A stretch of DNA of 64,000 nucleotides from Aporhodopirellula sallentina SM41 (GTDB lineage Bacteria > Planctomycetota > Planctomycetia > Pirellulales > Pirellulaceae), in NCBI RefSeq assembly GCF_000346505.1, contig NZ_ANOH01000197.1:1-64000 (forward strand), given 5' to 3'. The notes beneath the pieces are model-generated. The model saw only the letters and a program-made list of their open reading frames with translations, did not search any database and was not told the DNA's origin. How positions within the stretch are numbered: position 1 is the stretch's first letter; the number at the start of each line of letters is the position of its first letter. Both the position numbers and the translations under genes were made by a program. Below, one piece after another: positions 956-56,094 of the stretch.

Positions 956-1681
956 TCAGGACTTTTTCTTGCCGCTGATCGGGACCGCCAGGGGGCCGCC
1001 GAACGCGTCGTAGATCACCAGAAAGTTCAGCAAACCTGCGATCATCGTGAACCAAGTCCCCATCTCGTAGCCGCTGCCGCGACGCGCGTACCAGGCCGCC
1101 ACCTCATCGGCCTCACCCTCCAAGACCGGACGATGCGGGGGCGCCATGAATCCTCGCCACAGCGGCCGATAACTGTCGAGCGTTCGTCCCGTGGTCGGAT
1201 CGGTGGCGCGTCGCATTCGATCGCCCTGAACGAGCGCCGGCAGCGCGGCGGCGCCGACACCGGCTTGCAAGAAATAATGCCACCGGCGGTCTCCCGGTTG
1301 CCATGAGGCGTAAACCACGTTCCAACCGCCCAACGCAAACCCCAAGAACCAGATCGACAGAACGCTGATGATGAACAGCGTCGCCTTCGAATGCCGCCCC
1401 TGATAAATATGCCCGGCCCCCGGCACGATCCACGCCAGGAACGCCGCCAGGTAGCGGTTCTTCAGATCGACCTCGATCCCGTCGACTTCGATCAGCGAAT
1501 CGCCGTTGAGCACCTCGGGCGACAACTCGATTTGGCCGGGCTTCTTCGCCCCGTCGCCCTTCTTGGATTTGTTCGAATTTCCGTCATTCGAACCACCGTC
1601 CGTGCTCGAACTCTCGCCGGACGCCGATTTTTCGCTGGCGTGCGGCTGTTGCGAAGTGGATGTCCAAGAGCGAGCGGCCAT
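956..1681 (-). CDS. DUF6677-like membrane protein
   Basis: A 241-residue protein from the ATG at 1681. The upstream in-frame ATG at 1792 would add 37 residues that look random. The N-terminal ~70 residues are Ser/Gly/Lys-rich and probably disordered. From about residue 85 the sequence LKNRYLAAFLAWIVPGAGH is followed by YQGR and hydrophobic helices. This resembles the short membrane module of DUF6677 and TM2-like proteins, in which a helix ends in a PGxGHxYxGR turn. Another hydrophobic segment lies near the C-terminus (MIAGLLNFLVIYDAFGGPLA). Function is unknown. It is divergent from the large FtsK-like gene at 1933, with about 250 bases between them. The DUF assignment is from memory of the motif. 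Confidence 0.7.
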   Translation of the reverse strand: MAARSWTSTSQQPHASEKSASGESSSTDGGSNDGNSNKSKKGDGAKKPGQIELSPEVLNGDSLIEVDGIEVDLKNRYLAAFLAWIVPGAGHIYQGRHSKATLFIISVLSIWFLGFALGGWNVVYASWQPGDRRWHYFLQAGVGAAALPALVQGDRMRRATDPTTGRTLDSYRPLWRGFMAPPHRPVLEGEADEVAAWYARRGSGYEMGTWFTMIAGLLNFLVIYDAFGGPLAVPISGKKKS

Positions 1682-1932
1682 AGTCGTTTGGAAATCGTGG
1701 AACGATGGAGAGGAAGCGAAACCGGTTGCCGGCGTCGAGTCGATTGCACGCCGAAGACACGAATCCGATCGTGTGATTGCGGGAAAAAACAAGGCACATA
1801 GCGTGGCAAAACGATGCCGCGTTCCGCCTTATTAGTTTGTACCGGTTGTGCGTGACGCCTATTGTGCGAAATATTCGCTCCCGGCGATAGCCAAGCCACC
1901 CGGACGATCCAGTTCGGCTAGAATCGGTAGAT

Positions 1933-4900
1933 ATGAAAGACTCATCTGTTGCTCCTGTTTTCCTGTTTGATCCCGCACGACAGCGGCGATTAATCAATGG
2001 ACTCGTTGGTCGGGTGGCTGCCTCTCGCAGCGATCACGAGCGACTTTTGTTGGCACAGTCGGCTCAACATCAAGACCTCGAACGCAAGCTCGCCGAACAG
2101 CTCGCCGAGGTTCGACAAAACTGCCAGCAAGACCGACAGAGTACGCTCAAACAATGGGACAAGGCCCAAGAGCAGGCGATCGCGGCCTACGAAGCGGCCA
2201 CCGTCCAAACCCGCGACCAACTGCGACGGATTCGGATCAAGTATCGCAAGGCGGCCAAAGAACAGACCGATGTGATCGAAGGCAAAGTCGAAAAACGACT
2301 GATCGCGATCGAACATCAATACAACCAACGCAAAGGGCAACCGAAAAAGCAGCAGGCCGAACAGTACCAACAACTCGACGAAGCCCTCGCGGCCGGCGAC
2401 GAGGACCTGCAGTGGGCTCGCGACCTGACCATGCGGCGGCTCGATCAATTGCTCGAGGTGAACTTCCCGGCAGACCCGTACGCGGAATTCCAAGAAGCCG
2501 AACCCACCAACGTTCGCGACGCGATCGAATTAATCAGCCGACAAAACCGCCGCGTCAAAGCGGTCACGGTCGACATGCAGAAGGGGTTCGCGTCGAAGAC
2601 CGTCGACTCTTTCTATCTGCCCGCCGGCGTCGCCGTGTTTATCGCGATCGGCAGCATCGTGATGCTGACCATGAAACCGCAACCGCTGATTTGGTGGTTG
2701 ATCGGGTTGGTCGCCGTCGCCGGTGTGTTGGGGTTCATGATCTACGCGATTCTGCTGTTCCCGCTACGCCGGATGACTCGCAAATTGCATCCGCTCTCCG
2801 AACGCATTCGACACTCCGCCGAAGTGGCCGTTCAGCAAGGCAAGGCGATTTCGAAGAAGCAGGCCGAGGAGGCCGCCCAAGAATTGCTCGACCGCCGCAA
2901 AGCTCACATCGCCGAAGCCGAACGGTGGAAACGCGACCAACTCGCGGACTTGAAGAGCAAACTCGACAAAGCCCAATCCGAAGAGCAGGCCAAACTCGAA
3001 TCGCAACTCCAACGCATCGACGCTCAATTCCGCAGCGGCTTCGCGACGTTGCAAAAGACCATGCGGGAGCGAGCCGATACGCTCGCGTCGAACATCTCGC
3101 AAACGCTCACCCAAACCGACCAAGCAGCCGGGCAAACCCGACGCCAGACCCTCGCCAGCCACCAGCAAACACTGCAATCGCTCGCCCAACGGCTCGAGAC
3201 CGGACTGCGTCGCGGAATGAATCGCATTTTGGCGGCAACCGATTTGGTGCACTACCGGTTCCCGCCCTGGCAACAGATCCTCTCCTCGCCGCCGGACCCG
3301 CATGAATCGATCGACTTCCTGCCGCTCGGACAAATCCGTTTGGGCAAACGTCTAAAAAAGAAATTCGACGACGCACTGGGATACGCACACAGCAGCGACT
3401 CGCCGGCCGAAGCCGACATCCTTTCAAAGATCGACATTCCCGACACGATGCCGTTGGCGATTCACCGCCGGCGTCATTCCGGTGTGCTGATCGAAACGCC
3501 GTCGGAGAAACTCGACGAAGCGATCGATATTGCTCATCAAATCCTGTGGCGACTGCTCAGCAGTGCGATGCCGGGCCGGGCACGCGTGACCCTGATCGAT
3601 GCCAACAGTCGTGGTCAGCACTTTGCCAGCTTCATGGCTCTCGCCGATCACGATCCACAATTGATCCACCACCGCGTCTGGACGACCAGCGATAAGATCA
3701 CGCAGCGATTGACCGAACTGACACAACATGTCGAAAACGTCTTGCAAGCCAGCCTGCGGGACCGGTTCGAACGGATCGAGGATTACAACGAAGTCGCCGG
3801 TTCACTCGCCGAACCCTATCACGCGGTCGCGGCGGTCGGATTCCCCGACGGCCTGTCGCGGGATTCCTACATGCACCTGCAGTCGCTGATCCAAAGCGGC
3901 GCCCGGTGCGGCGTGTTTGTGATCTTGGTCGTCGAGAAAGATCGACCTTGGCCGACGGACATGCCACCGCTGCGCAGCGACAAGCTGTTGCGGATCGGCT
4001 ATCGCGAGGCCCTCACACCGGTCGTCGAACAGCAACCCGACGACTCCGGTGAAGAGGATGGTAAACAGCCCGCCTACGTTCCACCCGAACCGGGGTCCGC
4101 GGCGCACTGGGTTTGCGAATCCGACGGCCTCGAGGATCTCGAGTTCTGGCCCGCTCCACCGCCACCGTCGGAGGTCCGCGACCCGTTAATCCGGCGAATC
4201 GGCAAAGCGTCTTTGGAAGCCGCACGTGTCGTCGTGGGACTCGAATCGCTGCTCCCCGACGGTCGCGTTCCGACAGGCGACGAAACACAAAATACCGACA
4301 ACGGGATCGCGATCACGATCGGCAGCCAAGGTGCCGGGCGAACACGCAACCTGCTGCTCGGCGAAGGCGTCCGCCAACACGTCTTGATTGCCGGTAAGAC
4401 GGGTTCGGGCAAGAGCACGTTGCTCCACAGCATCATCACCGCCGGTGCGGCGCAGTACACGCCCGACCAACTGCAGTTCTATCTGCTGGACTTCAAGAAA
4501 GGGGTCGAGTTCAAAATCTACGCCGACAGAAACTTGCCACACGCGCGTGTGATCGGCATCGAAAGCGAACGCGAGTTCGGCCGCAGCGTCCTGCAACGCC
4601 TCGACGCTGAATTAACGTCCCGCGGGGAAGCGTTCCGTGACGCGAGCGTGCAGGAGGTCGCCGAGTTCCGGTCCAAGCGGCCCGACACGACGATGCCACG
4701 CATCGTGCTCGTCATCGATGAATTCCAAGAACTGTTCACGCGCGACGATTCGCTCGCGGCCGACTGCACCGCACTGCTCGACCGGCTCGTTCGCCAAGGC
4801 CGTTCGTTCGGGATCCACGTCATCCTCAGCAGCCAATCGCTCGCCGGTGCGAACAGCCTTCCGCGTGCGACGCTCGGACAAATGGCGGTTCGGGTCGCGA

Positions 4901-6105
4901 TGCAGTGCAGCGAATCGGACGCCGCGTTGATCCTCGCCGACGACAACACCGCCGCTAAACTTCTGTCGCGACCGGGCGAAGCGATCTACAACGACGCGAG
5001 CGGACTGCTCGAAGGCAACCATCCCTTCCAAGTCGCCTGGCTCGGGCCGCAAGAACACGAGGCGATGCTTAACGAAATCACTTCGCGCGACGCTTCGTTC
5101 GGCGAAACACTCGAACCGGCGATCGTGTTCGAGGGAAACCGTCCGAGCCGTTTCACCGCGAAACTCGCCGACATCGCGATCCAATCCGCGACCACATCCG
5201 ACCGCGTTGCAGGATTGCTCGGAGAAGCCGTCGAACTCGGGCCGCCGACAACGCTGCGTTTCCAATCCGACACTGGACGCAACGCCCTGCTCGTCGCGCC
5301 GCCTAAGATGCGGGTCGGCATTGTCGGCACCTTCATTGCGTCTGCGATCAAACACTCGCCGGACCTATCGATCATCTTTTTCGACGGGTCGCGAGCCGAC
5401 GACGGCGAATCGCCCGCGGATTGGATTCGCGCCTCGGGCATCACCGCCGAGCTGGTCCGCACCCGCGATGCAGAGAACAAGATGATCGCGTTGTCCAACC
5501 TCGTCGCCGCACGAGTCGCGAAGGAAACCGGCCGCGAAGTCGAAACGCCTCCGAAACAACCCAGTGATCACGCCAACTTCCAAGGCACGTTCTCACTCGA
5601 TGATCCGAGCGGCCCCAGTTCCGACGCGTCACCGACAGACCAATCTGCGGACAACACGAACGGGCAACCAGATGCTGCACCGGAGCCGATCGAAGATGAC
5701 GGCCGAACGATGTTGGTGATTGTTGACGCCCTGGACCGGATGCGTGATTTAAGGCAAAGTGAGCAGCTCGATTTCTCGCTCGACGCGGCATACAAACAAA
5801 ACGGCAGCAAAGCGTTCCAATCGGTGCTCCGCGACGGACCCTCGGTCGGCGTGTTTGTCTTGGTCACGTTGCCGTCGGCCGAAATCCTATCGCGATGGTT
5901 GCCTCGCCAAAGCCAACATGATCTCGAGATTCGACTGATCGGCCCGATCAACGCAGCCGACTCGTCGCTGCTGATCGATTCGCCGGTCGCGTCTGAACTG
6001 TCCCCCGCCACCATGATTCTTTACGACGATGCCGATGGCCGCACGACGAAGTTCCGCCTTTGCGACCCACCTCCTCCAGAAGAAGTCGCCGCTCTGCTCG
6101 GTTGA
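1933..6105 (+). CDS. FtsK/SpoIIIE-type motor with three ATPase modules (EssC/EccC-like)
   Basis: A 1390-residue protein. Residues ~35-220 are a long charged coiled coil. Two transmembrane helices follow (~231-248 and ~253-279), then a second coiled coil (~290-440). Three FtsK-like modules come next. Module 1 (~500-690) has no Walker A but keeps VTLIDANSRG and a Walker-B-like strand. Module 2 (~775-1010) is intact, with Walker A AGKTGSGKST at ~819, LLDFKKG at ~851 and Walker B RIVLVIDEFQEL at ~924. Module 3 (~1110-1390) again lacks Walker A (ALLVAPPKMRVGIVG) but keeps TMLVIVDALDRM. Membrane helices followed by three tandem ATPases is the layout of type VII secretion motors EccC/EssC. Septal FtsK has one module and a gamma domain, which is absent here. 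No WXG100 gene lies nearby. The substrate, DNA or protein, is unknown. Confidence 0.85.
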   Translation: MKDSSVAPVFLFDPARQRRLINGLVGRVAASRSDHERLLLAQSAQHQDLERKLAEQLAEVRQNCQQDRQSTLKQWDKAQEQAIAAYEAATVQTRDQLRRIRIKYRKAAKEQTDVIEGKVEKRLIAIEHQYNQRKGQPKKQQAEQYQQLDEALAAGDEDLQWARDLTMRRLDQLLEVNFPADPYAEFQEAEPTNVRDAIELISRQNRRVKAVTVDMQKGFASKTVDSFYLPAGVAVFIAIGSIVMLTMKPQPLIWWLIGLVAVAGVLGFMIYAILLFPLRRMTRKLHPLSERIRHSAEVAVQQGKAISKKQAEEAAQELLDRRKAHIAEAERWKRDQLADLKSKLDKAQSEEQAKLESQLQRIDAQFRSGFATLQKTMRERADTLASNISQTLTQTDQAAGQTRRQTLASHQQTLQSLAQRLETGLRRGMNRILAATDLVHYRFPPWQQILSSPPDPHESIDFLPLGQIRLGKRLKKKFDDALGYAHSSDSPAEADILSKIDIPDTMPLAIHRRRHSGVLIETPSEKLDEAIDIAHQILWRLLSSAMPGRARVTLIDANSRGQHFASFMALADHDPQLIHHRVWTTSDKITQRLTELTQHVENVLQASLRDRFERIEDYNEVAGSLAEPYHAVAAVGFPDGLSRDSYMHLQSLIQSGARCGVFVILVVEKDRPWPTDMPPLRSDKLLRIGYREALTPVVEQQPDDSGEEDGKQPAYVPPEPGSAAHWVCESDGLEDLEFWPAPPPPSEVRDPLIRRIGKASLEAARVVVGLESLLPDGRVPTGDETQNTDNGIAITIGSQGAGRTRNLLLGEGVRQHVLIAGKTGSGKSTLLHSIITAGAAQYTPDQLQFYLLDFKKGVEFKIYADRNLPHARVIGIESEREFGRSVLQRLDAELTSRGEAFRDASVQEVAEFRSKRPDTTMPRIVLVIDEFQELFTRDDSLAADCTALLDRLVRQGRSFGIHVILSSQSLAGANSLPRATLGQMAVRVAMQCSESDAALILADDNTAAKLLSRPGEAIYNDASGLLEGNHPFQVAWLGPQEHEAMLNEITSRDASFGETLEPAIVFEGNRPSRFTAKLADIAIQSATTSDRVAGLLGEAVELGPPTTLRFQSDTGRNALLVAPPKMRVGIVGTFIASAIKHSPDLSIIFFDGSRADDGESPADWIRASGITAELVRTRDAENKMIALSNLVAARVAKETGREVETPPKQPSDHANFQGTFSLDDPSGPSSDASPTDQSADNTNGQPDAAPEPIEDDGRTMLVIVDALDRMRDLRQSEQLDFSLDAAYKQNGSKAFQSVLRDGPSVGVFVLVTLPSAEILSRWLPRQSQHDLEIRLIGPINAADSSLLIDSPVASELSPATMILYDDADGRTTKFRLCDPPPPEEVAALLG

Positions 6106-8930: not shown

Positions 8931-9548
8931 GTGTCAGGGGACGACTCACATCACACCGGTCAGGAGCAGGATCGGGGTCAGGAGCTGGCTCAGCGTCAAA
9001 GCCAGGGCCAAGATCATGGACAACGCCAAGGCCACGGACAACGCCAAGGCGCCGGACAAAGCCCACTGGAGAAACCCGCGGCGCGTCTTGCCCTGATCCT
9101 TGTCGCTGGTTTCGCGGCCGCGTTGACCTTACCGCACCTTCGCGACGAACAAACAACCGCCCCGACCTCGGTGCCTGTTGCGTTCACGTCGGAACCGATT
9201 GAGCCATTGACCGGAACGCCGCCGACTCTCCCCCGAATGTCGCCGCTGCCGAGAACCACTCAGGCGGAACGTGTGCGTTTGATGAGGATTCCGATAAATG
9301 TCGCGAGTGATCGAGAGCTCGGTTTGTTGCCAAATATTGGGCCCAACATGGTCACCAAAATTCGTCGGCGCCGAGAGACGTGTGGCGAGTTCCTTTCCCT
9401 GCCAGAGCTTTCCCAAATCAACGGGCTCGGTGCATCGACAATTGAAGCGATTGCTCCTTGGTGCGAGATTGACCAAACGCACTCGGGGTCGTATCGTTCC
9501 GTCATCAAAACCGTGCCCCCACTTTGCCACGTTACCCTGGATCGATGA
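8931..9548 (+). CDS. Membrane-anchored helix-hairpin-helix (ComEA-like) protein
   Basis: The frame is open from 8805, but the in-frame GTG at 8931 is the likelier start. The N-terminal ~45 residues are a Gln/Gly/His-rich repeat (GQRQGHGQRQGAGQ) encoded by an 18-bp tandem array. A transmembrane helix follows (ARLALILVAGFAAALTLP), then a Pro/Thr-rich linker. The C-terminal part is a tandem HhH domain: INVASDRELGLLPNIGPNMV then LPELSQINGLGASTIEAIAP. ComEA-type proteins bind double-stranded DNA outside the membrane for uptake; topology here would place the HhH domain outside. No other competence gene is adjacent. The stop is 1 base before the next ATG. Confidence 0.8.
   Translation: MSGDDSHHTGQEQDRGQELAQRQSQGQDHGQRQGHGQRQGAGQSPLEKPAARLALILVAGFAAALTLPHLRDEQTTAPTSVPVAFTSEPIEPLTGTPPTLPRMSPLPRTTQAERVRLMRIPINVASDRELGLLPNIGPNMVTKIRRRRETCGEFLSLPELSQINGLGASTIEAIAPWCEIDQTHSGSYRSVIKTVPPLCHVTLDR
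8960..9060. repeat. 18-bp tandem repeat inside the HhH gene
   Basis: Degenerate 18-bp units start at about 8960, 8978, 8996, 9014 and 9032. The last two share 15 bases (GGACAACGCCAAGG within each). The period keeps the frame and encodes a Gln/Gly-rich hexapeptide before the membrane helix. Confidence 0.75.
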
Positions 9549-11132: not shown

Positions 11133-12461
11133 TCACACGAGTGAAACAATCGCTTCGACCAGCCCGTCGATGTGGCCTCGTTGATGAGCCGCCGACAACG
11201 AGATACGCAGCCTCGCGGTTCCTTCAGGTACGGTCGGTGGTCGAATCGCGGGAACGTAGTAACCTCGCTCGCGAAGCCGGGTACTCATCGCAACGGTTGC
11301 CTCATCGCTGCCGATGATCACCGGCACGATCGGTATGCCCTCAAAGATCTCCCTGTCCGCGGTCGCGTCACCGCCACCACAAGGGCCGAGCATCTCATCG
11401 GGCAAACGGTTCCCTAACTGCTCGCGCAGGCAAGCCGCCAACCGCGTCACGTGCTCGCGTCGCGCCCGCAGTCCTTCCATCGACGCAATCACCCGTTCCG
11501 CCCCGGCGGCGGTCCGTGGCGACAACGCGGTGCTGAAAATCAGTGTCCGACAAAACTGGACCAGATAATCCGTCACCACCCGCGGGCCTGCAACAAAACC
11601 GCCCTGATGACCGATCGCTTTACTCAGTGTTCCAATACGAACCGCGACGTGGTCTCGAACCCCGAGAGCCTCGCACAGCCCGCCTCCGTTTTGGCCGAGC
11701 ACCCCCGTGCCGTGCGCTTCGTCGACGAGGACCTGCGCGTCATACCGCTCGGCAACCTGAACGAGTTCCCGCAGCGGTGCGGCGTCGCCGTCCATGCTGA
11801 ACACGCCATCGGTCACAATCCAAACACGTCCGAACCGCGGCCGAGACTCTTGCAAGACACCCTCAACGTGCCTCACATCACGGTGGGGATACACCTGCCG
11901 ATCTGCTTTCGACGCCCGACAACCATCGATCAACGAAGCATGATTGAGCTCGTCGCTCAGAATCAAATCGCCTTCACGACATAACGTCGCGACCGCACCA
12001 CTGCACGCCGCGTAGCCGGAAGGGAACACCACCGCCGACTCAGTCCGCTCCAACCGAGCGATCGATTTGGCCAACCGATCATGAGCCGGTGTCCAACCAC
12101 ATACCAACGGACTCGCCGTCGCCCCACACTGCTCCTGCCCGAAGAACGCTTCCCCCTTCTCTGCCTGACCACTGCCAGAGCGATGAACACTGCCAGAGCG
12201 ATGAACACCGCCAGAGCTATGAACACTGCCAGAGCTATGAGCACCGCCGGAGCACTCAAGACCGTCGCCACACTCACCGCCGAGCCCCTCGGCAACAATC
12301 CCGAGATAGTCGTTGCCGCCAAAGTTGAGCAGGCGTTCCGACTGGTCAGTGACCAGAGACACGCCGTCGAGGTACTGAACGACCAACCGGCGCGTCCGCC
12401 CCCGCGACTTCATTTCATCGAGCGAACGTGCAAAGTCATCGAACGGGGTGCGGTCTGGCAT
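11133..12461 (-). CDS. bioF: 8-amino-7-oxononanoate synthase
   Basis: A 442-residue PLP enzyme of the alpha-oxoamine synthase family, which condenses pimeloyl-ACP/CoA with L-alanine in biotin synthesis. Landmarks are LLNFGGNDYLGI, SGYAACSGAVATL, LSDELNHASLIDGCRASKA, VDEAHGTGVLG and the PLP lysine in GTLSKAIGHQGGF, then RTLIFSTALSP. BioF is usually about 385 residues. The excess is a Gly/Ser/His-rich insert near residues 72-105 (units such as HSSGSV, HRSGSV) encoded by the 18-bp array at 12170-12257. The insert lies between LLNFGGNDYLG and the substrate domain, probably as a surface loop. KBL (2-amino-3-ketobutyrate ligase) is a less likely alternative. No other bio gene is adjacent. Confidence 0.87.
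   Translation of the reverse strand: MPDRTPFDDFARSLDEMKSRGRTRRLVVQYLDGVSLVTDQSERLLNFGGNDYLGIVAEGLGGECGDGLECSGGAHSSGSVHSSGGVHRSGSVHRSGSGQAEKGEAFFGQEQCGATASPLVCGWTPAHDRLAKSIARLERTESAVVFPSGYAACSGAVATLCREGDLILSDELNHASLIDGCRASKADRQVYPHRDVRHVEGVLQESRPRFGRVWIVTDGVFSMDGDAAPLRELVQVAERYDAQVLVDEAHGTGVLGQNGGGLCEALGVRDHVAVRIGTLSKAIGHQGGFVAGPRVVTDYLVQFCRTLIFSTALSPRTAAGAERVIASMEGLRARREHVTRLAACLREQLGNRLPDEMLGPCGGGDATADREIFEGIPIVPVIIGSDEATVAMSTRLRERGYYVPAIRPPTVPEGTARLRISLSAAHQRGHIDGLVEAIVSLV
12170..12259. repeat. 18-bp in-frame tandem repeat inside bioF
   Basis: Units of CACTGCCAGAGCGATGAA start at 12170, 12188, 12206 and 12224, with a diverged fifth at 12242. On the coding (minus) strand they encode repeated hexapeptides of the type HSSGSV. 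Confidence 0.92.
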
Positions 12462-50686: not shown

Positions 50687-51985
50687 ATGCCGGGAGAATC
50701 TTTTCGCTTTATCCACGCCAGCGACTTTCATTTGGAAACGCCGCTCGGGGATCTCGATCAACTGCCGCCCAACCTCCGCGAAGCTCTCGCGACCGCCCCA
50801 CGCACGGCAGCGGCGGCGGTTTTCGAAGCCGCCTTGGCCGAGAACATTGACTTTCTCGTGCTCAGTGGCGACCTGTTGCATCCTGTCGCGGCGGGGCCGC
50901 ATGGGATGTCCTTGCTGCTCGACAATTTCGAGAAACTGCACGCCGCTGGCACCCCGGTTTACTGGGCCGCCGGCATCGCGGACGATCCCAAACAGTGGCC
51001 CGAGGCGGTACCTTTGCCGCCGAACGTGACACTGTTTCCTCGCGACAAACCATTGTCTGTCCCTTATGAACGGGCCGGCCGGGTCGTCTGCACCATCGTC
51101 GGTCGCAGCAGCGAGGGACGCTCCTCGTTGCACGTCCCCGGATTCCAAACCGAACCGACCGACGAGTTCACCGTCGGCGTCGGCTACGGCGCGGCCGATG
51201 CCAACGCGCTCGCCAGCGGCCGGATGGATTACTGGGCACTCGGCGGCGCTCACAACTACACCGAGATCGAAGACGGGGCACCAGCCGGCGCGATCCAACC
51301 GGGTTCGCCGCAGGGCCGCGGTCTCGATGAAGCCGGACCGCACGGGTACTGCGTCGTCGACGTCGATGCCGAACAAACCGCTCGCATTCACCGTGTCGAA
51401 ACGGATCAATTCCGATACTGCCACGAAACGATCGATGCTCAAGAAATCCGCACCGTCGGCAGCCTGCGAAACCTGCTCGGTCAAAAGATCGCTGCCTTGG
51501 CAAACGACAACGGCGGCCGTCATCTGTTGATCGCGTGGGATGTTGCTCTGAACGATCCTGAACTGATTTCATCGGTCGGCGATCCGGTGGAACTGCTGCG
51601 GCAACTGCGACGCGACCATGGCAACGGCAACCCGTCGGCATGGACGACTCGTTTGACCGTTCGTCCGCCTCGTACCTATCCAAAATCATGGCGTGAAGAA
51701 GACACCATTCTCGGTGACTTCCTGCGTGCCTCGGACAAGTTCCGAAAAGCGTCGGCGTCGAACAGCAGCACGCCTGGGAACACCGACGCGTCTGGTTCGA
51801 CCGCGAAGGCCGGCCAGGTTCAATTGATGCCGTTCACGGAAGAACACCCCGAACTCTCCAGCACCGCGACCACCATGCTCGGCGACGTGCCGGCTCAACA
51901 TCGCGATGAAACACTCGACGAAGCGACGCTGCTGGGCGTCGAACTGCTTCGCGGTGGCAAACCGTCATGGGGACGTAAATCATGA
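50687..51985 (+). CDS. YhaO/SbcD-like metallophosphoesterase with a degenerate site
   Basis: A 432-residue protein. The opening FRFIHASDFHLETPLGDL gives motif I (DxH). FLVLSGDLLHP gives motif II with GD but His instead of the usual second Asp. The GNHD of motif III is replaced by GIADD in VYWAAGIADDPKQW. YWALGGAHNYTEI stands for the late GGxH motif. SbcD, Mre11 and YhaO need the GNHD residues for metal and catalysis, so the nuclease may be weak or lost. The gene overlaps the partner ATPase gene (ATGA), as expected for an Mre11-Rad50-like pair. A low-complexity Ser/Thr/Gly stretch lies near residues 355-380. Confidence 0.85.
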   Translation: MPGESFRFIHASDFHLETPLGDLDQLPPNLREALATAPRTAAAAVFEAALAENIDFLVLSGDLLHPVAAGPHGMSLLLDNFEKLHAAGTPVYWAAGIADDPKQWPEAVPLPPNVTLFPRDKPLSVPYERAGRVVCTIVGRSSEGRSSLHVPGFQTEPTDEFTVGVGYGAADANALASGRMDYWALGGAHNYTEIEDGAPAGAIQPGSPQGRGLDEAGPHGYCVVDVDAEQTARIHRVETDQFRYCHETIDAQEIRTVGSLRNLLGQKIAALANDNGGRHLLIAWDVALNDPELISSVGDPVELLRQLRRDHGNGNPSAWTTRLTVRPPRTYPKSWREEDTILGDFLRASDKFRKASASNSSTPGNTDASGSTAKAGQVQLMPFTEEHPELSSTATTMLGDVPAQHRDETLDEATLLGVELLRGGKPSWGRKS

Positions 51986-54900
51986 AGATCAAAGACATCC
52001 AAATCGACGGTTTCGGCGTCTGGACCGGGTTGAGCGTTGACTCGCTCAGCGAAGGCATGACGTTGTTCTACGGCCCCAACGAAGCGGGCAAGACGACGTT
52101 GATGCAGTTCCTGCGCGCGATGCTGTACGGCTTCACGCCCGAACGCCGCGGCCGCTATTTGCCACCGATTCACGGCGGTTCCCCGGGCGGTGCGATTCGC
52201 GTGACCGGCCCCGGCGGTGGATACGAAATTCGTCGCCACAGCCAACTGACCGATGCCGACACGACCGGCCGACTGACGGTGACCGGCACCGATGGGCTGA
52301 GCCAAGGCCAACACCGACTGAGCATGCTGCTCGGACAAATCGATGAACCGATCTTCACGAACGTGTTCGCGATCGGCATCCGCGAACTGCAAGAACTCAG
52401 CACGCTCGACGATACCTCGGCGGCCGACGAACTTTACAAACTCAGCAGCGGACTGGACCGGGTCTCGTTGGTCGACGTGCTGCGCAGCCTTCGGGCAGGT
52501 CGTACCGAGTTGATTGGCAAAGACACATCTTCCCAGAGCGAAGAAGAGGCCGCTGCCAACCACCTCGCCGGGCTGTTGACGCGGCGTGAAAAGCTCCGCG
52601 ATGAAATCCAACGGCTCACCGGTCAAACTCGCCGGTGGAGTGAAATGGCGACACAGCGCCGGACGCAAAGCCAAGAGATCGAATCGCTGCGCGGACGCAT
52701 GGTCGCTTGGGAACGCGAAGCACGCTGCGTCGAGATCGCCACCAGCGTTCACGAACCGTGGCAGAAGCGGGCCCAGCTCACCGCGGAAATCGAAGCCATC
52801 GAGGGCGAAGCCCACCTGCCCGACGATGCGCCATCGCAACTCGTCCAGATCGACGCGCTGATCGAAGAACGCAAAGCCAAGATCGAAGAGATTCGAAACC
52901 GCCGTCGCTCACTACGCGACAAAGCCGAACAACTGCCGGTCAACAAACGGCTATTCGATCTGCAAGGCCGCATCGAAGCCGCTACCCAACAGGCGACTTG
53001 GGTCGAAGCCCTCGAAGAACAAATCGATCGCATCGACACGCAGATCGAAAAAGCTCGCAAGCAAGTCGAAGCGGACGCCGACCGGCTCGGCATCGACGAA
53101 CATGAACGCATGCAAATCGCCGAGGGTGACACCGGCTCGCTGCCGGACCTGTCCCGCAGCACTCTCGCGGCGTTGTCGGGCCCCGCCAAGAACGTCAAAG
53201 AACAAAGCTTCCTGCTCAAACAGGCTCGCACCGAGGGCAAAACGCACAAGGCTCGCGCCGAAAAACTCGGCGAGAAACTGCAAGACGTTCTCAACCGGGC
53301 CCATGCCAGCGACCTGCAACAAGCCATCCGGCGCGAGAACGACAACATCTCGTCGCTGCGGCATCGCATCCAACTCGGCCAACACCTCGAAAAACTAACG
53401 CGGCACTATCGCGACCTCGAGAGCGAATCGATCGAACTGACGACCGATGAAGCGCTGCCGATGGACCGGTTGTTCCTGCTCGGACTGCCGTTTGTCGTCG
53501 GCGGAATGTTGGTCCTCTACGGGCTGTTCAATGTTTTCCAAATCACGACGTTCGTCGCTCGCCCGAACCCAACGCAGGGGATGCTATGCATCATGTTCGG
53601 GGCGATGGCGTTGTTGGTTTACTACCTCAGCCGCGAGCGTGGCCAACGCAGCACGGTCAACGATCTCGAAGATTGCGAGCGTCAAATCGAAAGCGTTCGC
53701 CGTCAGATTCGCGAGATCGAGTCCGAACGCGAAGAAGTCGACTCGCATCTGCCGACCAGCAACGAATCGCTCGAAGCACGCCTGCGGGAATCCGAAACCC
53801 TGCTCGCCGAACTCGAAGAATCCTTGCCCGTCTATCACTCGCACGAAGCCGCCATGCAGTCGTACAAGGCGTCCTACGCCCGTGCGACCAAGGCCGCCGA
53901 GGGGATGAAAGAAGCCCGCCGCGAATGGACCGCCACGCTCGATCGACTCGGCCTGGCAAACACGCTCTCACCCAAGAGCGTCCGCACGCTCGGCGACGGC
54001 TACGAAACATTGCAAGCCAGCCTGCGACGTTTGCAGGACCTTCGCGATGAACGGGAACAACGTCGACGCGAACGGCAAACAATCGCCAAACGAATCGAGA
54101 CGTTGTACATCGAAGCCCTCGATGCCTCCGAAGGAAACACCTCCGCGGCCGAACACGGTTACAACGACGAATATGAGCCGGAACAACGCGACAGTTCCGA
54201 TCGCAATCGCAACAAGAAACGCGAAAAGAACCGTCGCTCGAAAGGCAACCGCGATTCGGCCCAATACCGATCTCTCGGACCGAACGGATACGAGGACGAC
54301 TACGAAAACGTCGACCAGGATCGCTATCAAGATGACGATTCGGAATCGTTCTCGCGTCGCACTTCGGCGATCTCGGGCAGTGCCTCCACTGCACTGAAGT
54401 CGCGCAGTAACCCGCTCGACCAACTCAACCATCTGCACGAAGAACTCGCCCGCCAACAACACTGGATCAAACAGCGTCGCGACCTCAAGGCGCAAGACCA
54501 ACAGTACAAGAAGCAACACGCTTCGCACGCCAGCACGATCGAACGTGCCGAACAACAACGGCGTGCCCTGTGGGCGAAGTGTGGCGTTGCGACGGCGGAA
54601 CAGTTCTACCAAATCGTTGACCGCAAATCGCTGCTCGCCCAACTGATGGAAGAACGTGATTCGGTCGACAAACAGATCCGAACCATGATCGGAACGTCGG
54701 TACAATACGAAGACGTTGAACGGGAAATCGAAGGCGCGAAAGCGTCCGATCTCGAACGACGTTGGGACTCGTTGACCACGCGGATGACCGAAACGGAAGC
54801 CCGCATCGCATCGATGCAAACCGCACAAGGTGAACTCGCCGCCAGCATGAAACAGCTCGGCGATGATGACCGTTTGATGACCGCCCGACTCGAACTCGGA

Positions 54901-56094
54901 TGCGTCGAACGCAAACTCGATAAACTCGCCCGCCGTTGGCAAACCCTTGCGACAGCGAGCTGCCTGCTCGAAGACGTTTGCGGCACGTTCGAGCGCGAAC
55001 GCCAACCGGAAACGCTCCGTGAAGCGTCGTCGTTCCTGAACCAATTGACCGATGGGAAATACACTCGCATCTGGACGCCGCTGGGCACCAACCAATTGAA
55101 GATTGACGACAACGACGGAAAGGCGTTGCCGCTCGAGGTCCTCAGCCGTGGTACCGGCGAAGCCGTTTTCATCGCACTGCGTCTTTCGCTCGCGGCCGCC
55201 TATGCCCGACGCGGTGTCATGCTGCCATTGGTTCTCGACGACGTGCTCGTGAACTTTGACGGGGAACGCGCCGAACACGCCGCCCGAACCCTGCAAACGT
55301 TCGCCGAACTCGGGCACCAGGTCATGATGTTCACCTGCCACGATCACATCGTCGAAATCTTCCACCAAATCGGTGTCGAAGTTCGCCAAATGCCCGCACA
55401 GGGAACGCCGGGCCGAGCAAGCATCCTGCCTCCGCCGGAAGAATCCTACGAATACGAAGAGCCGGAATACGAAGAGGAGATGGAGGAAGAGGAACCCGAA
55501 CCGATGGCCGAAATCATCGAGCCGGAGCCGGAACCCGAACCAATGCCTGCACCGGAGCCGCTGCCGGTCGTTGTCACACCGCCACCGTTGCCGCTCGCCC
55601 GACCCGCGTCACTCGTTGTGGAAAACCGCGTACAACCGACGCGTCCCAAACCGCCAAAATCGAAATACCGTTTCGGCTTTGAAAAACTGCATCGACAACA
55701 CCGACGCCGACGCGCGCCGGAAATCAAAATCGCGCCGAAGAAGATCCCCCAACCGGAACCCGTTCGCGAAACACGCGTCATCGTCGAACGCGAACCGGAA
55801 CCGATCACCGAAACTCGCGTCGTTGACAACTCGATCGGCTGGGCATGGTTCGAACGGGAACCGGCGGATGGGCGTATCGACGCCGAGGAAGCCGCCGCTC
55901 AAGCGACCCGCAATCAATGGCTCGCCGAGGAAGACCGGGTCACCGAAACCGAAACGGCGGATGACGAGTACGCCAACGGCGAGTTCGCCAAATCCGCACG
56001 CTACGACCACGATTCTGATAACGGGGGAGATGAGGTCACCAACGAAGACGAACGCTCGTGGTGGCACGGCGAAAAACTCGGCCGCGCGTCGTAG
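51982..56094 (+). CDS. YhaN/SbcC-like ATPase with central membrane helices
   Basis: A 1370-residue SMC-like ATPase. IDGFGVWTGLSVDSL and Walker A LFYGPNEAGKTTLMQFL (residues ~27-45) open it, followed by long coiled coils. In the middle, two membrane helices (~496-520 and ~530-548, LLGLPFVVGGMLVLYGLFNV...) interrupt the coil, as in B. subtilis YhaN. A charged insert (~716-806, rich in Asn/Arg/Asp/Tyr) follows. The ABC signature VLSRGTGEAVFIALRLS and Walker B LPLVLDDVLVNFD lie near residues 1050-1095. A Glu/Pro-rich tail (~1152-1370, EEPEYEEEMEEEEPEPMAE) ends the protein and is not part of the family. It acts with the YhaO-like product in DNA-end metabolism, probably at the membrane. Confidence 0.88.
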   Translation: MKIKDIQIDGFGVWTGLSVDSLSEGMTLFYGPNEAGKTTLMQFLRAMLYGFTPERRGRYLPPIHGGSPGGAIRVTGPGGGYEIRRHSQLTDADTTGRLTVTGTDGLSQGQHRLSMLLGQIDEPIFTNVFAIGIRELQELSTLDDTSAADELYKLSSGLDRVSLVDVLRSLRAGRTELIGKDTSSQSEEEAAANHLAGLLTRREKLRDEIQRLTGQTRRWSEMATQRRTQSQEIESLRGRMVAWEREARCVEIATSVHEPWQKRAQLTAEIEAIEGEAHLPDDAPSQLVQIDALIEERKAKIEEIRNRRRSLRDKAEQLPVNKRLFDLQGRIEAATQQATWVEALEEQIDRIDTQIEKARKQVEADADRLGIDEHERMQIAEGDTGSLPDLSRSTLAALSGPAKNVKEQSFLLKQARTEGKTHKARAEKLGEKLQDVLNRAHASDLQQAIRRENDNISSLRHRIQLGQHLEKLTRHYRDLESESIELTTDEALPMDRLFLLGLPFVVGGMLVLYGLFNVFQITTFVARPNPTQGMLCIMFGAMALLVYYLSRERGQRSTVNDLEDCERQIESVRRQIREIESEREEVDSHLPTSNESLEARLRESETLLAELEESLPVYHSHEAAMQSYKASYARATKAAEGMKEARREWTATLDRLGLANTLSPKSVRTLGDGYETLQASLRRLQDLRDEREQRRRERQTIAKRIETLYIEALDASEGNTSAAEHGYNDEYEPEQRDSSDRNRNKKREKNRRSKGNRDSAQYRSLGPNGYEDDYENVDQDRYQDDDSESFSRRTSAISGSASTALKSRSNPLDQLNHLHEELARQQHWIKQRRDLKAQDQQYKKQHASHASTIERAEQQRRALWAKCGVATAEQFYQIVDRKSLLAQLMEERDSVDKQIRTMIGTSVQYEDVEREIEGAKASDLERRWDSLTTRMTETEARIASMQTAQGELAASMKQLGDDDRLMTARLELGCVERKLDKLARRWQTLATASCLLEDVCGTFERERQPETLREASSFLNQLTDGKYTRIWTPLGTNQLKIDDNDGKALPLEVLSRGTGEAVFIALRLSLAAAYARRGVMLPLVLDDVLVNFDGERAEHAARTLQTFAELGHQVMMFTCHDHIVEIFHQIGVEVRQMPAQGTPGRASILPPPEESYEYEEPEYEEEMEEEEPEPMAEIIEPEPEPEPMPAPEPLPVVVTPPPLPLARPASLVVENRVQPTRPKPPKSKYRFGFEKLHRQHRRRRAPEIKIAPKKIPQPEPVRETRVIVEREPEPITETRVVDNSIGWAWFEREPADGRIDAEEAAAQATRNQWLAEEDRVTETETADDEYANGEFAKSARYDHDSDNGGDEVTNEDERSWWHGEKLGRAS

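What the first reader, a model, noticed from the sequence alone, without database searches (positions are those of the whole stretch)
1933..6105. Stand-alone motor with three FtsK/SpoIIIE modules of which only the middle has Walker A
Seen: two coiled coils, two membrane helices, then a degenerate module (~500-690), an intact one (~775-1010, AGKTGSGKST) and a second degenerate one (~1110-1390). Known: type VII secretion motors EccC/EssC have membrane helices and three such modules with selective loss of ATPase sites. Long coiled coils flanking the membrane part are not typical for either FtsK or EssC. No WXG100 gene is near. It may represent a different secretion or translocation system.
Basis: partly seen in the sequence, partly recalled or inferred. 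Interest (0 to 1): 0.7.

Follow-up and report, generated by a model that had tools for sequence, protein, structure and literature searches.

The report
Planctomycete type VII-like secretion motor
The gene encodes a membrane-anchored ATP-driven motor related to those that export small helical WXG100-type proteins; its likely partners are encoded elsewhere in this genome but next to the motor in many relatives, and motors of this kind are known in print only from brief mentions.

Summary
Window 1933-6105 encodes 1390 aa: coil-like stretch, two membrane helices, coil-like stretch, then three FtsK-type modules, only the middle with a P-loop (model pLDDT 89). It is neither septal FtsK, encoded elsewhere in the genome, nor an EccC/EssC equivalog. 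In 39 of 64 full-length motors with enough upstream sequence, three same-strand genes precede it: A (WXG100 with W-x-D), B (helical) and C (W-x-D hairpin). 'No WXG100 near' is locally true, but A and C lie on other contigs of this genome; B was not found. In 294 genomes of the phylum motor and A co-occur in 38, with 1 motor-only and 2 A-only, often unlinked. The kind is known: Zhang et al. 2012 mention in a footnote planctomycete 'solo WXG' systems with three FtsK domains, only the middle active; a branch without membrane helices was described in 2024. Apparently new: the membrane-anchored anatomy, partners B and C, and their co-inheritance. Export itself is inferred.

The parts
1933..6105 (+). 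motor gene, 1390 aa, membrane-anchored ('class I', my label) middle-active FtsK/EssC-like ATPase
2020..2472 (+). N-terminal coiled-coil-like region, about residues 30-180
   Evidence: composition only
2611..2667 (+). membrane helix 1, residues 227-245
   Evidence: hydropathy 2.22
2698..2754 (+). membrane helix 2, residues 256-274
   Evidence: hydropathy 2.57
2833..3192 (+). second coiled-coil-like region, residues 301-420
   Evidence: composition only
3427..4047 (+). module 1, degenerate RecA/FtsK-like fold, about residues 499-705
4174..5082 (+). module 2, intact FtsK-like ATPase, residues 748-1050
4393..4416 (+). only P-loop, GKTGSGKS, residues 821-828
   Evidence: conserved columns
4705..4722 (+). 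Walker B, residues 925-930, invariant D929-E930
5110..6102 (+). module 3, degenerate FtsK-like module, residues 1060-1390
956..1792 (-). upstream neighbour on the other strand, DUF6677 protein; the place where many relatives have A-B-C

Best explanation
The protein is the motor of a minimal type VII-like (WXG100/FtsK) machine. Shown by sequence and model: a membrane hairpin between two coil-like stretches, three FtsK-fold modules, a single P-loop in the middle module, and three co-inherited, apparently helical partners, A (WXG100 with W-x-D), B and C. Inferred from FtsK, EccC and EssC: the motor forms a hexameric ring; hairpins and coils form stalk and pore; only module 2 hydrolyses ATP; modules 1 and 3 are structural or substrate-binding rings; A, B and C, as a helical-bundle complex or with B as carrier of cargo, are the recognised substrates or partners and are moved across the inner membrane. 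In this lineage the operon is broken up: A is on contig C141, C on C285 beside a HEAT-repeat gene, the motor in this window; B was not found in the assembly.
For: Fold and single P-loop. Closest solved relatives are EccC chains by sequence and EccC/EssC by Foldseek. Order A-B-C-motor on one strand in 39 of 64 full-length motors with at least 2.5 kb upstream; B-C in 1, C alone in 11, none in 13; no A, B or C hit elsewhere in those loci at the script's thresholds. Clustering of called genes in 100 loci found the motor, A, B and C families and then nothing above 12 loci. Phylum sample, 294 genomes: motor 39, A 40, both 38 (Fisher p 3e-44, which ignores shared ancestry); C with motor 38; B with motor 36. 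By the listed places A is unlinked to the motor in 13 of the 38, at least 4 of which may be contig breaks; in G105 motor, A, B and C are at four distant places of one chromosome. Own family, 199 genomes: motor 121, B at E<=1e-20 117, both 115 (hand count). A passes Pfam's WXG100 cut-off (38.7 vs 27.3 bits). HEAT-C at C285 of this genome matches HEAT-C-motor of a Rubripirellula (HEAT proteins 58% identical).
Against: No secretion data. No channel subunit or outer-membrane part among conserved neighbours; none was sought genome-wide, and planctomycetes are diderm (recalled). The nearest branch lacks a membrane hairpin by the same crude test and stands among defence-type genes, so export may not be the ancestral job. 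B, a constant partner elsewhere, was not found in this genome. In the phylum sample A and B each gave one match per positive genome and C one strong match, unlike toxin-exporting T7SS with many effectors; the motor is in only 39 of 294 genomes, twice in G076. The profiles used for co-occurrence were built partly from genomes of the same sample.
Confidence: 0.6

Rival explanations
1. An intracellular conflict or stress machine rather than an exporter: A, B and C assemble with the ring and the motor loads or moves B-borne domains within the cell, as may happen in the branch without a membrane hairpin.
For: The neighbouring branch in the tree (joint support 93/80, below the starred level) has VWA, PP2C, kinase and SF1-helicase neighbours in the members scanned and longer B-like proteins; the published counterpart has a nuclease fusion (PMC11090510). 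In ours a nuclease-like motif is seen by eye only; Pfam found no family. Three of the six class I B proteins with the longest tips carry an Imm33-like domain.
Against: The window's branch has two membrane-like segments (71 of 84 motors by a crude test), no defence genes among the widely shared neighbours, and steady co-inheritance.
Confidence: 0.2
2. A canonical type VII system (EccC/EssC orthologue) that has lost subunits.
For: Same superfamily, membrane hairpin, tandem modules, WXG100 partner.
Against: Far below the equivalog cut-offs (106 vs 509, 98.6 vs 347, 90 vs 778 bits). Class I module 2 sequences form their own group (97/95), apart from EccC D1 and D2. Three modules follow the membrane part, where EccC has a DUF plus three ATPase domains (PMC11154593, passages).
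Confidence: 0.08
3. A DNA translocase: a second FtsK/SpoIIIE or a conjugative coupling protein.
For: Module 2 aligns best by VIA with the FtsK motor (Z 31.5, 278 aligned, rmsd 2.4); module 1 with conjugative TcpA (Z 18.6, 186 aligned, rmsd 2.3).
Against: A protein with FtsK alpha, motor and gamma domains is encoded elsewhere in the genome; this protein has no alpha or gamma match; its co-inherited partners are WXG100-like.
Confidence: 0.05

Closest known systems
'Solo WXG' systems with a YueA-like ATPase, three HerA/FtsK domains, only the middle active (Zhang et al. 2012, PMC3482391, Table 1 footnote 6; passages seen)
   Same: Same motor arrangement, WXG partner, same phyla named (planctomycetes, verrucomicrobia).
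   Different: In the passages seen: no membrane hairpin, coils, B or C described; they 'appear to be mobile', whereas the branch here is steadily co-inherited with its partners.
EssC-like FtsK ATPase of Type III-A CoCoNuT extensions (PMC11090510; passages seen)
   Same: Three ATPase domains with only the central one predicted active, long N-terminal coiled coil, two WXG100 proteins, and a coiled-coil protein that may correspond to B.
   Different: That branch lacks membrane helices, is tied to TerY-like genes, and its coiled-coil protein is fused to a nuclease domain; one of its WXG100 proteins is said to have W-x-G.
EccC/EssC of ESX and T7SSb
   Same: Membrane hairpin, tandem FtsK-type modules, WXG100 partner; module 2 profile scores highest on the first ATPase of EccC (81-90 bits vs 41-61 for the second, domains told by position).
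   Different: Three modules after the membrane instead of a DUF plus three ATPases; coil-like stretches; W-x-D for W-x-G; no further subunit conserved nearby.
WxG plus FtsK pair of Helicobacter, called a minimal set of T7SS (PMC4978471; passages seen)
   Same: Two-part logic of WXG protein plus FtsK-type ATPase.
   Different: Not compared by sequence here.
FtsK/SpoIIIE
   Same: Fold of the motor module.
   Different: No gamma domain, two extra degenerate modules, a separate FtsK in the genome.

Membership tests
Middle-active 'solo WXG' FtsK systems (Zhang 2012) | three HerA/FtsK modules, only the middle with ATPase site | tested here: met
   one P-loop in 84 of 84 long motors
Middle-active 'solo WXG' FtsK systems (Zhang 2012) | WXG-domain partner | tested here: met
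   partner unlinked in this genome
Middle-active 'solo WXG' FtsK systems (Zhang 2012) | mobility | tested here: inconclusive
   patchy in the phylum (39 of 294) yet co-inherited; no transfer test made
CoCoNuT-associated EssC-like motor | no transmembrane helices | tested here: not met
   two strong hydrophobic segments
CoCoNuT-associated EssC-like motor | TerY-type and nuclease-fusion neighbours | tested here: not met
   none among the four window proteins scanned at the motor nor among the widely shared neighbours of relatives
EccC/EssC equivalogs | curated NCBIfam cut-offs | tested here: not met
EccC/EssC equivalogs | DUF plus three ATPase domains after the membrane hairpin | tested here: not met
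   model shows three modules after the second coil-like stretch; which EccC domains they match is unsettled
EccC/EssC equivalogs | EccB/D/E or EsaA/EssA/EssB subunits | tested here: inconclusive
   no fifth conserved neighbour; not sought genome-wide
EccC/EssC equivalogs | secretes WXG100 proteins | not testable with these tools
   needs experiment
Septal FtsK | alpha and gamma domains | tested here: not met
   no match (E up to 1); both present in another protein of this genome
WXG100 (protein A) | PF06013 above cut-off | tested here: met
   38.7 vs 27.3 bits for this genome's A; also the three other A proteins scanned
WXG100 (protein A) | W-x-G motif | tested here: not met
   W-x-D; W and D invariant in the 43 A proteins aligned (of 51 found)

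The most novel reading that the evidence does not exclude
A minimal four-protein exporter of diderm bacteria: the membrane-anchored motor ring is itself the inner-membrane pore, with no EccB/D/E-type channel, and it serves one fixed cargo, an A-B-C W-x-D helical complex, as a housekeeping rather than a weapon system; it and the branch without membrane helices found in defence islands would be two fates of one ancestral WXG/FtsK pair.
Probability: 0.25. Interest if true: 0.75.

Novelty: new variant of a known kind. Interest (0 to 1): 0.5.

Why it matters
Type VII secretion is studied mainly in Actinomycetota and Bacillota. A four-gene, co-inherited version in Planctomycetota, with relatives in Verrucomicrobiota, would show how little such a machine needs, give a simple system for testing how two degenerate rings and one active ring handle WXG100-type proteins, and tie secretion motors to a related branch found in defence islands.

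Tried and rejected
Septal FtsK: rejected. That modules 1-2-3 are EccC's DUF, ATPase 1 and ATPase 2: the module 2 profile favours ATPase 1. The module 3 profile matches EccC5 at E 1e-4, best on the ATPase 2 stretch but with 13.4 bits only (i-Evalue 0.31), and alkaline phosphatases follow at E 0.03. Module 1 matches one PDB sequence up to E 10, an FtsK at 0.97, and its model is closer to ATPase-type domains (Z 12-19) than to the DUF (8rin, 9qks, Z 10.5). The CoCoNuT authors call the middle one a D2 homologue. Left open. B in the own genome: an E 0.004 hit inside a 1206-aa frame judged chance. All 12 other genomes of the genus in the sample have a B match at E 2e-21 or better, away from the motor; 5 of these 12 matches contain one stop. 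An assembly gap or divergence in G000 is likely, not shown. The tree has long branches, weak support for class II as one group (39/0), two EccC proteins and no EssC.

L044 and L098 appear to be one genome counted twice. Genes in loci were called by a simple script, so neighbour counts are approximate. L110 (called Anaerolineae) and L127 (called Alphaproteobacteria) are metagenome bins and may be misassigned.

Literature: ten searches of an open-access library. Passages were seen of PMC3482391, PMC4631099, PMC11154593, PMC11090510 and PMC4978471; none was read whole. Anantharaman et al. 2012 was seen only as cited. That the membrane-anchored form, B and C are undescribed rests on these alone.
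Full report
Observation. Window 1933-6105 encodes a 1390-aa protein. Two hydrophobic helices at 227-245 and 256-274 separate two stretches of coiled-coil-like composition; a single P-loop stands at 821. Pfam reports only the middle module. The AlphaFold model of residues 440-1390, made with 72 rows, has mean pLDDT 88.9, and its best Foldseek matches are EccC and EssC. Module 1 folded alone has pLDDT 88.7 and matches TcpA, EssC and FtsK with Z 16-19. Module 3 is a relative of module 2 by profile comparison (E 3.3e-14) and module 1 of module 3 (E 7.3e-8), though module 1 did not match module 2 directly.

Not septal FtsK. The genome (8.19 Mb, 491 contigs) has another protein with FtsK alpha, motor and gamma domains. 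The protein's module 2 falls in a group of 18 like motors (support 97/95), next to plasmid and island motors (joint support 93/80) and apart from FtsK and EccC (midpoint root, long branches).

Partners. In many relatives three small genes precede the motor. A is a WXG100 protein: the four scanned pass Pfam's cut-off. It has W-x-D for W-x-G, W and D being invariant in the 43 aligned. B is a protein of about 170 aa or more with no significant Pfam family in the three scanned. C is a W-x-D protein of about 70 aa, W and D invariant in the 42 aligned. Of 64 full-length motors with at least 2.5 kb upstream, 39 have A-B-C in that order, 1 B-C, 11 C alone and 13 none, and no further A, B or C hit lies in those loci at the script's thresholds. 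Beyond these four families the most widespread neighbour family is in 12 of 100 loci; the member scanned is a DUF1501 protein.

The window's genome. A is on contig C141, overlapping a gene with weak TPR-type matches, and C on C285, behind a HEAT-repeat gene. In a Rubripirellula (L065) the order is HEAT-C-motor, and the HEAT proteins are 58% identical, so the motor and C have parted in this lineage. R. solitaria and R. europaea also lack C beside the motor. B was not found here.

Co-inheritance. In 294 genomes of the phylum the motor is in 39, A in 40, B in 38, C in 41 (one of these, G080, weak at E 8.5e-4). Motor and A share 38; motor without A G219, A without motor G271 and G279. Motor and C share 38; motor without C G107. 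Motor and B share 36; motor without B G000, G107 and G219. The Fisher value treats genomes as independent, which they are not, and the profiles were built partly from genomes of this sample; the unlinked cases matter more. In G105 the four genes lie at four distant places of one chromosome; in G024 motor, A and B-C are at three. In the own family, 199 genomes, motor and strong B (E<=1e-20) share 115, motor alone 6 (G000, G353, G378, G379, G384, G468), B alone 2 (G461, G480), by hand count; five of these eight are under 90% complete.

Second branch. Three Pirellulaceae genomes hold a second, shorter motor of 1039-1068 aa. VWA-like genes stand beside it by eye; A was detected in two of the three (L184, L186), and B-like proteins of 436-443 aa in the same two. 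In the members scanned Pfam confirmed VWA, PP2C and kinase domains and an SF1-type helicase, which also scores as MkoA in PADLOC. A Caballeronia plasmid has a like arrangement. It resembles the CoCoNuT-associated cassette described in 2024, though the nuclease motif on our B-like proteins is seen by eye only. A Rhodococcus plasmid has, by eye, motor, a long B, C and A.

Prior work. Zhang et al. [quoted passage not shown] So the motor type is known. In the passages found by ten searches of an open-access library I saw no description of the membrane-anchored form, of B and C, or of their co-inheritance.

Mechanism. Shown: anatomy, single P-loop, predicted fold, gene order, co-occurrence. Inferred: hexamer, ATP-driven ring in module 2, modules 1 and 3 as structural or substrate-binding rings, A-B-C as substrate or partner complex, movement across the inner membrane. 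Against: no channel or outer-membrane partner known, a related branch without membrane helices, no experiment. Which EccC domains the three modules match stays open.

Noticed in passing
L184:4161-9886, L185:5303-12005, L186:3362-16166 (unnamed Pirellulaceae genomes) and L151 (Caballeronia plasmid): Second, shorter single-P-loop motors beside VWA-like, PP2C or kinase and SF1 helicase genes, with longer B-like proteins that have a nuclease-like motif by eye; resembles the CoCoNuT-associated cassette of PMC11090510.
   Followed up: partly
L126:4872-5963, L135:7891-8874, L089:6898-8235: B proteins with a C-terminal Imm33-like domain (PF24719), a possible cargo or regulatory tip.
   Followed up: no
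L147:9492-11354 and L065:8086-9923: HEAT-repeat-type protein directly before C in Rubripirellula-type relatives; still beside C in the window's genome, where the motor is elsewhere.
   Followed up: partly
L061:9671-10826: In the window's genome the WXG100 gene A overlaps an upstream gene with weak TPR-type matches.
   Followed up: no
L062:7206-13740 (own genome, contig C88): FtsK-type ATPase with a PD-(D/E)XK nuclease domain, beside an AAA protein and a Schlafen-group-3 helicase; possible defence island.
   Followed up: no
window 12166-12253, 563-666 and 9007-9063: 18-bp tandem repeats; the first lies inside ORF 11133-12461 (-), BioF-like by eye, and adds a repetitive Ser/Gly/His stretch in frame.
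   Followed up: partly
window 51982-56094: A second very large ORF (1370 aa) in the window, not examined.
   Followed up: no
G076: One genome with two full-size class I motors on different contigs (L045, L050) and one A.
   Followed up: no
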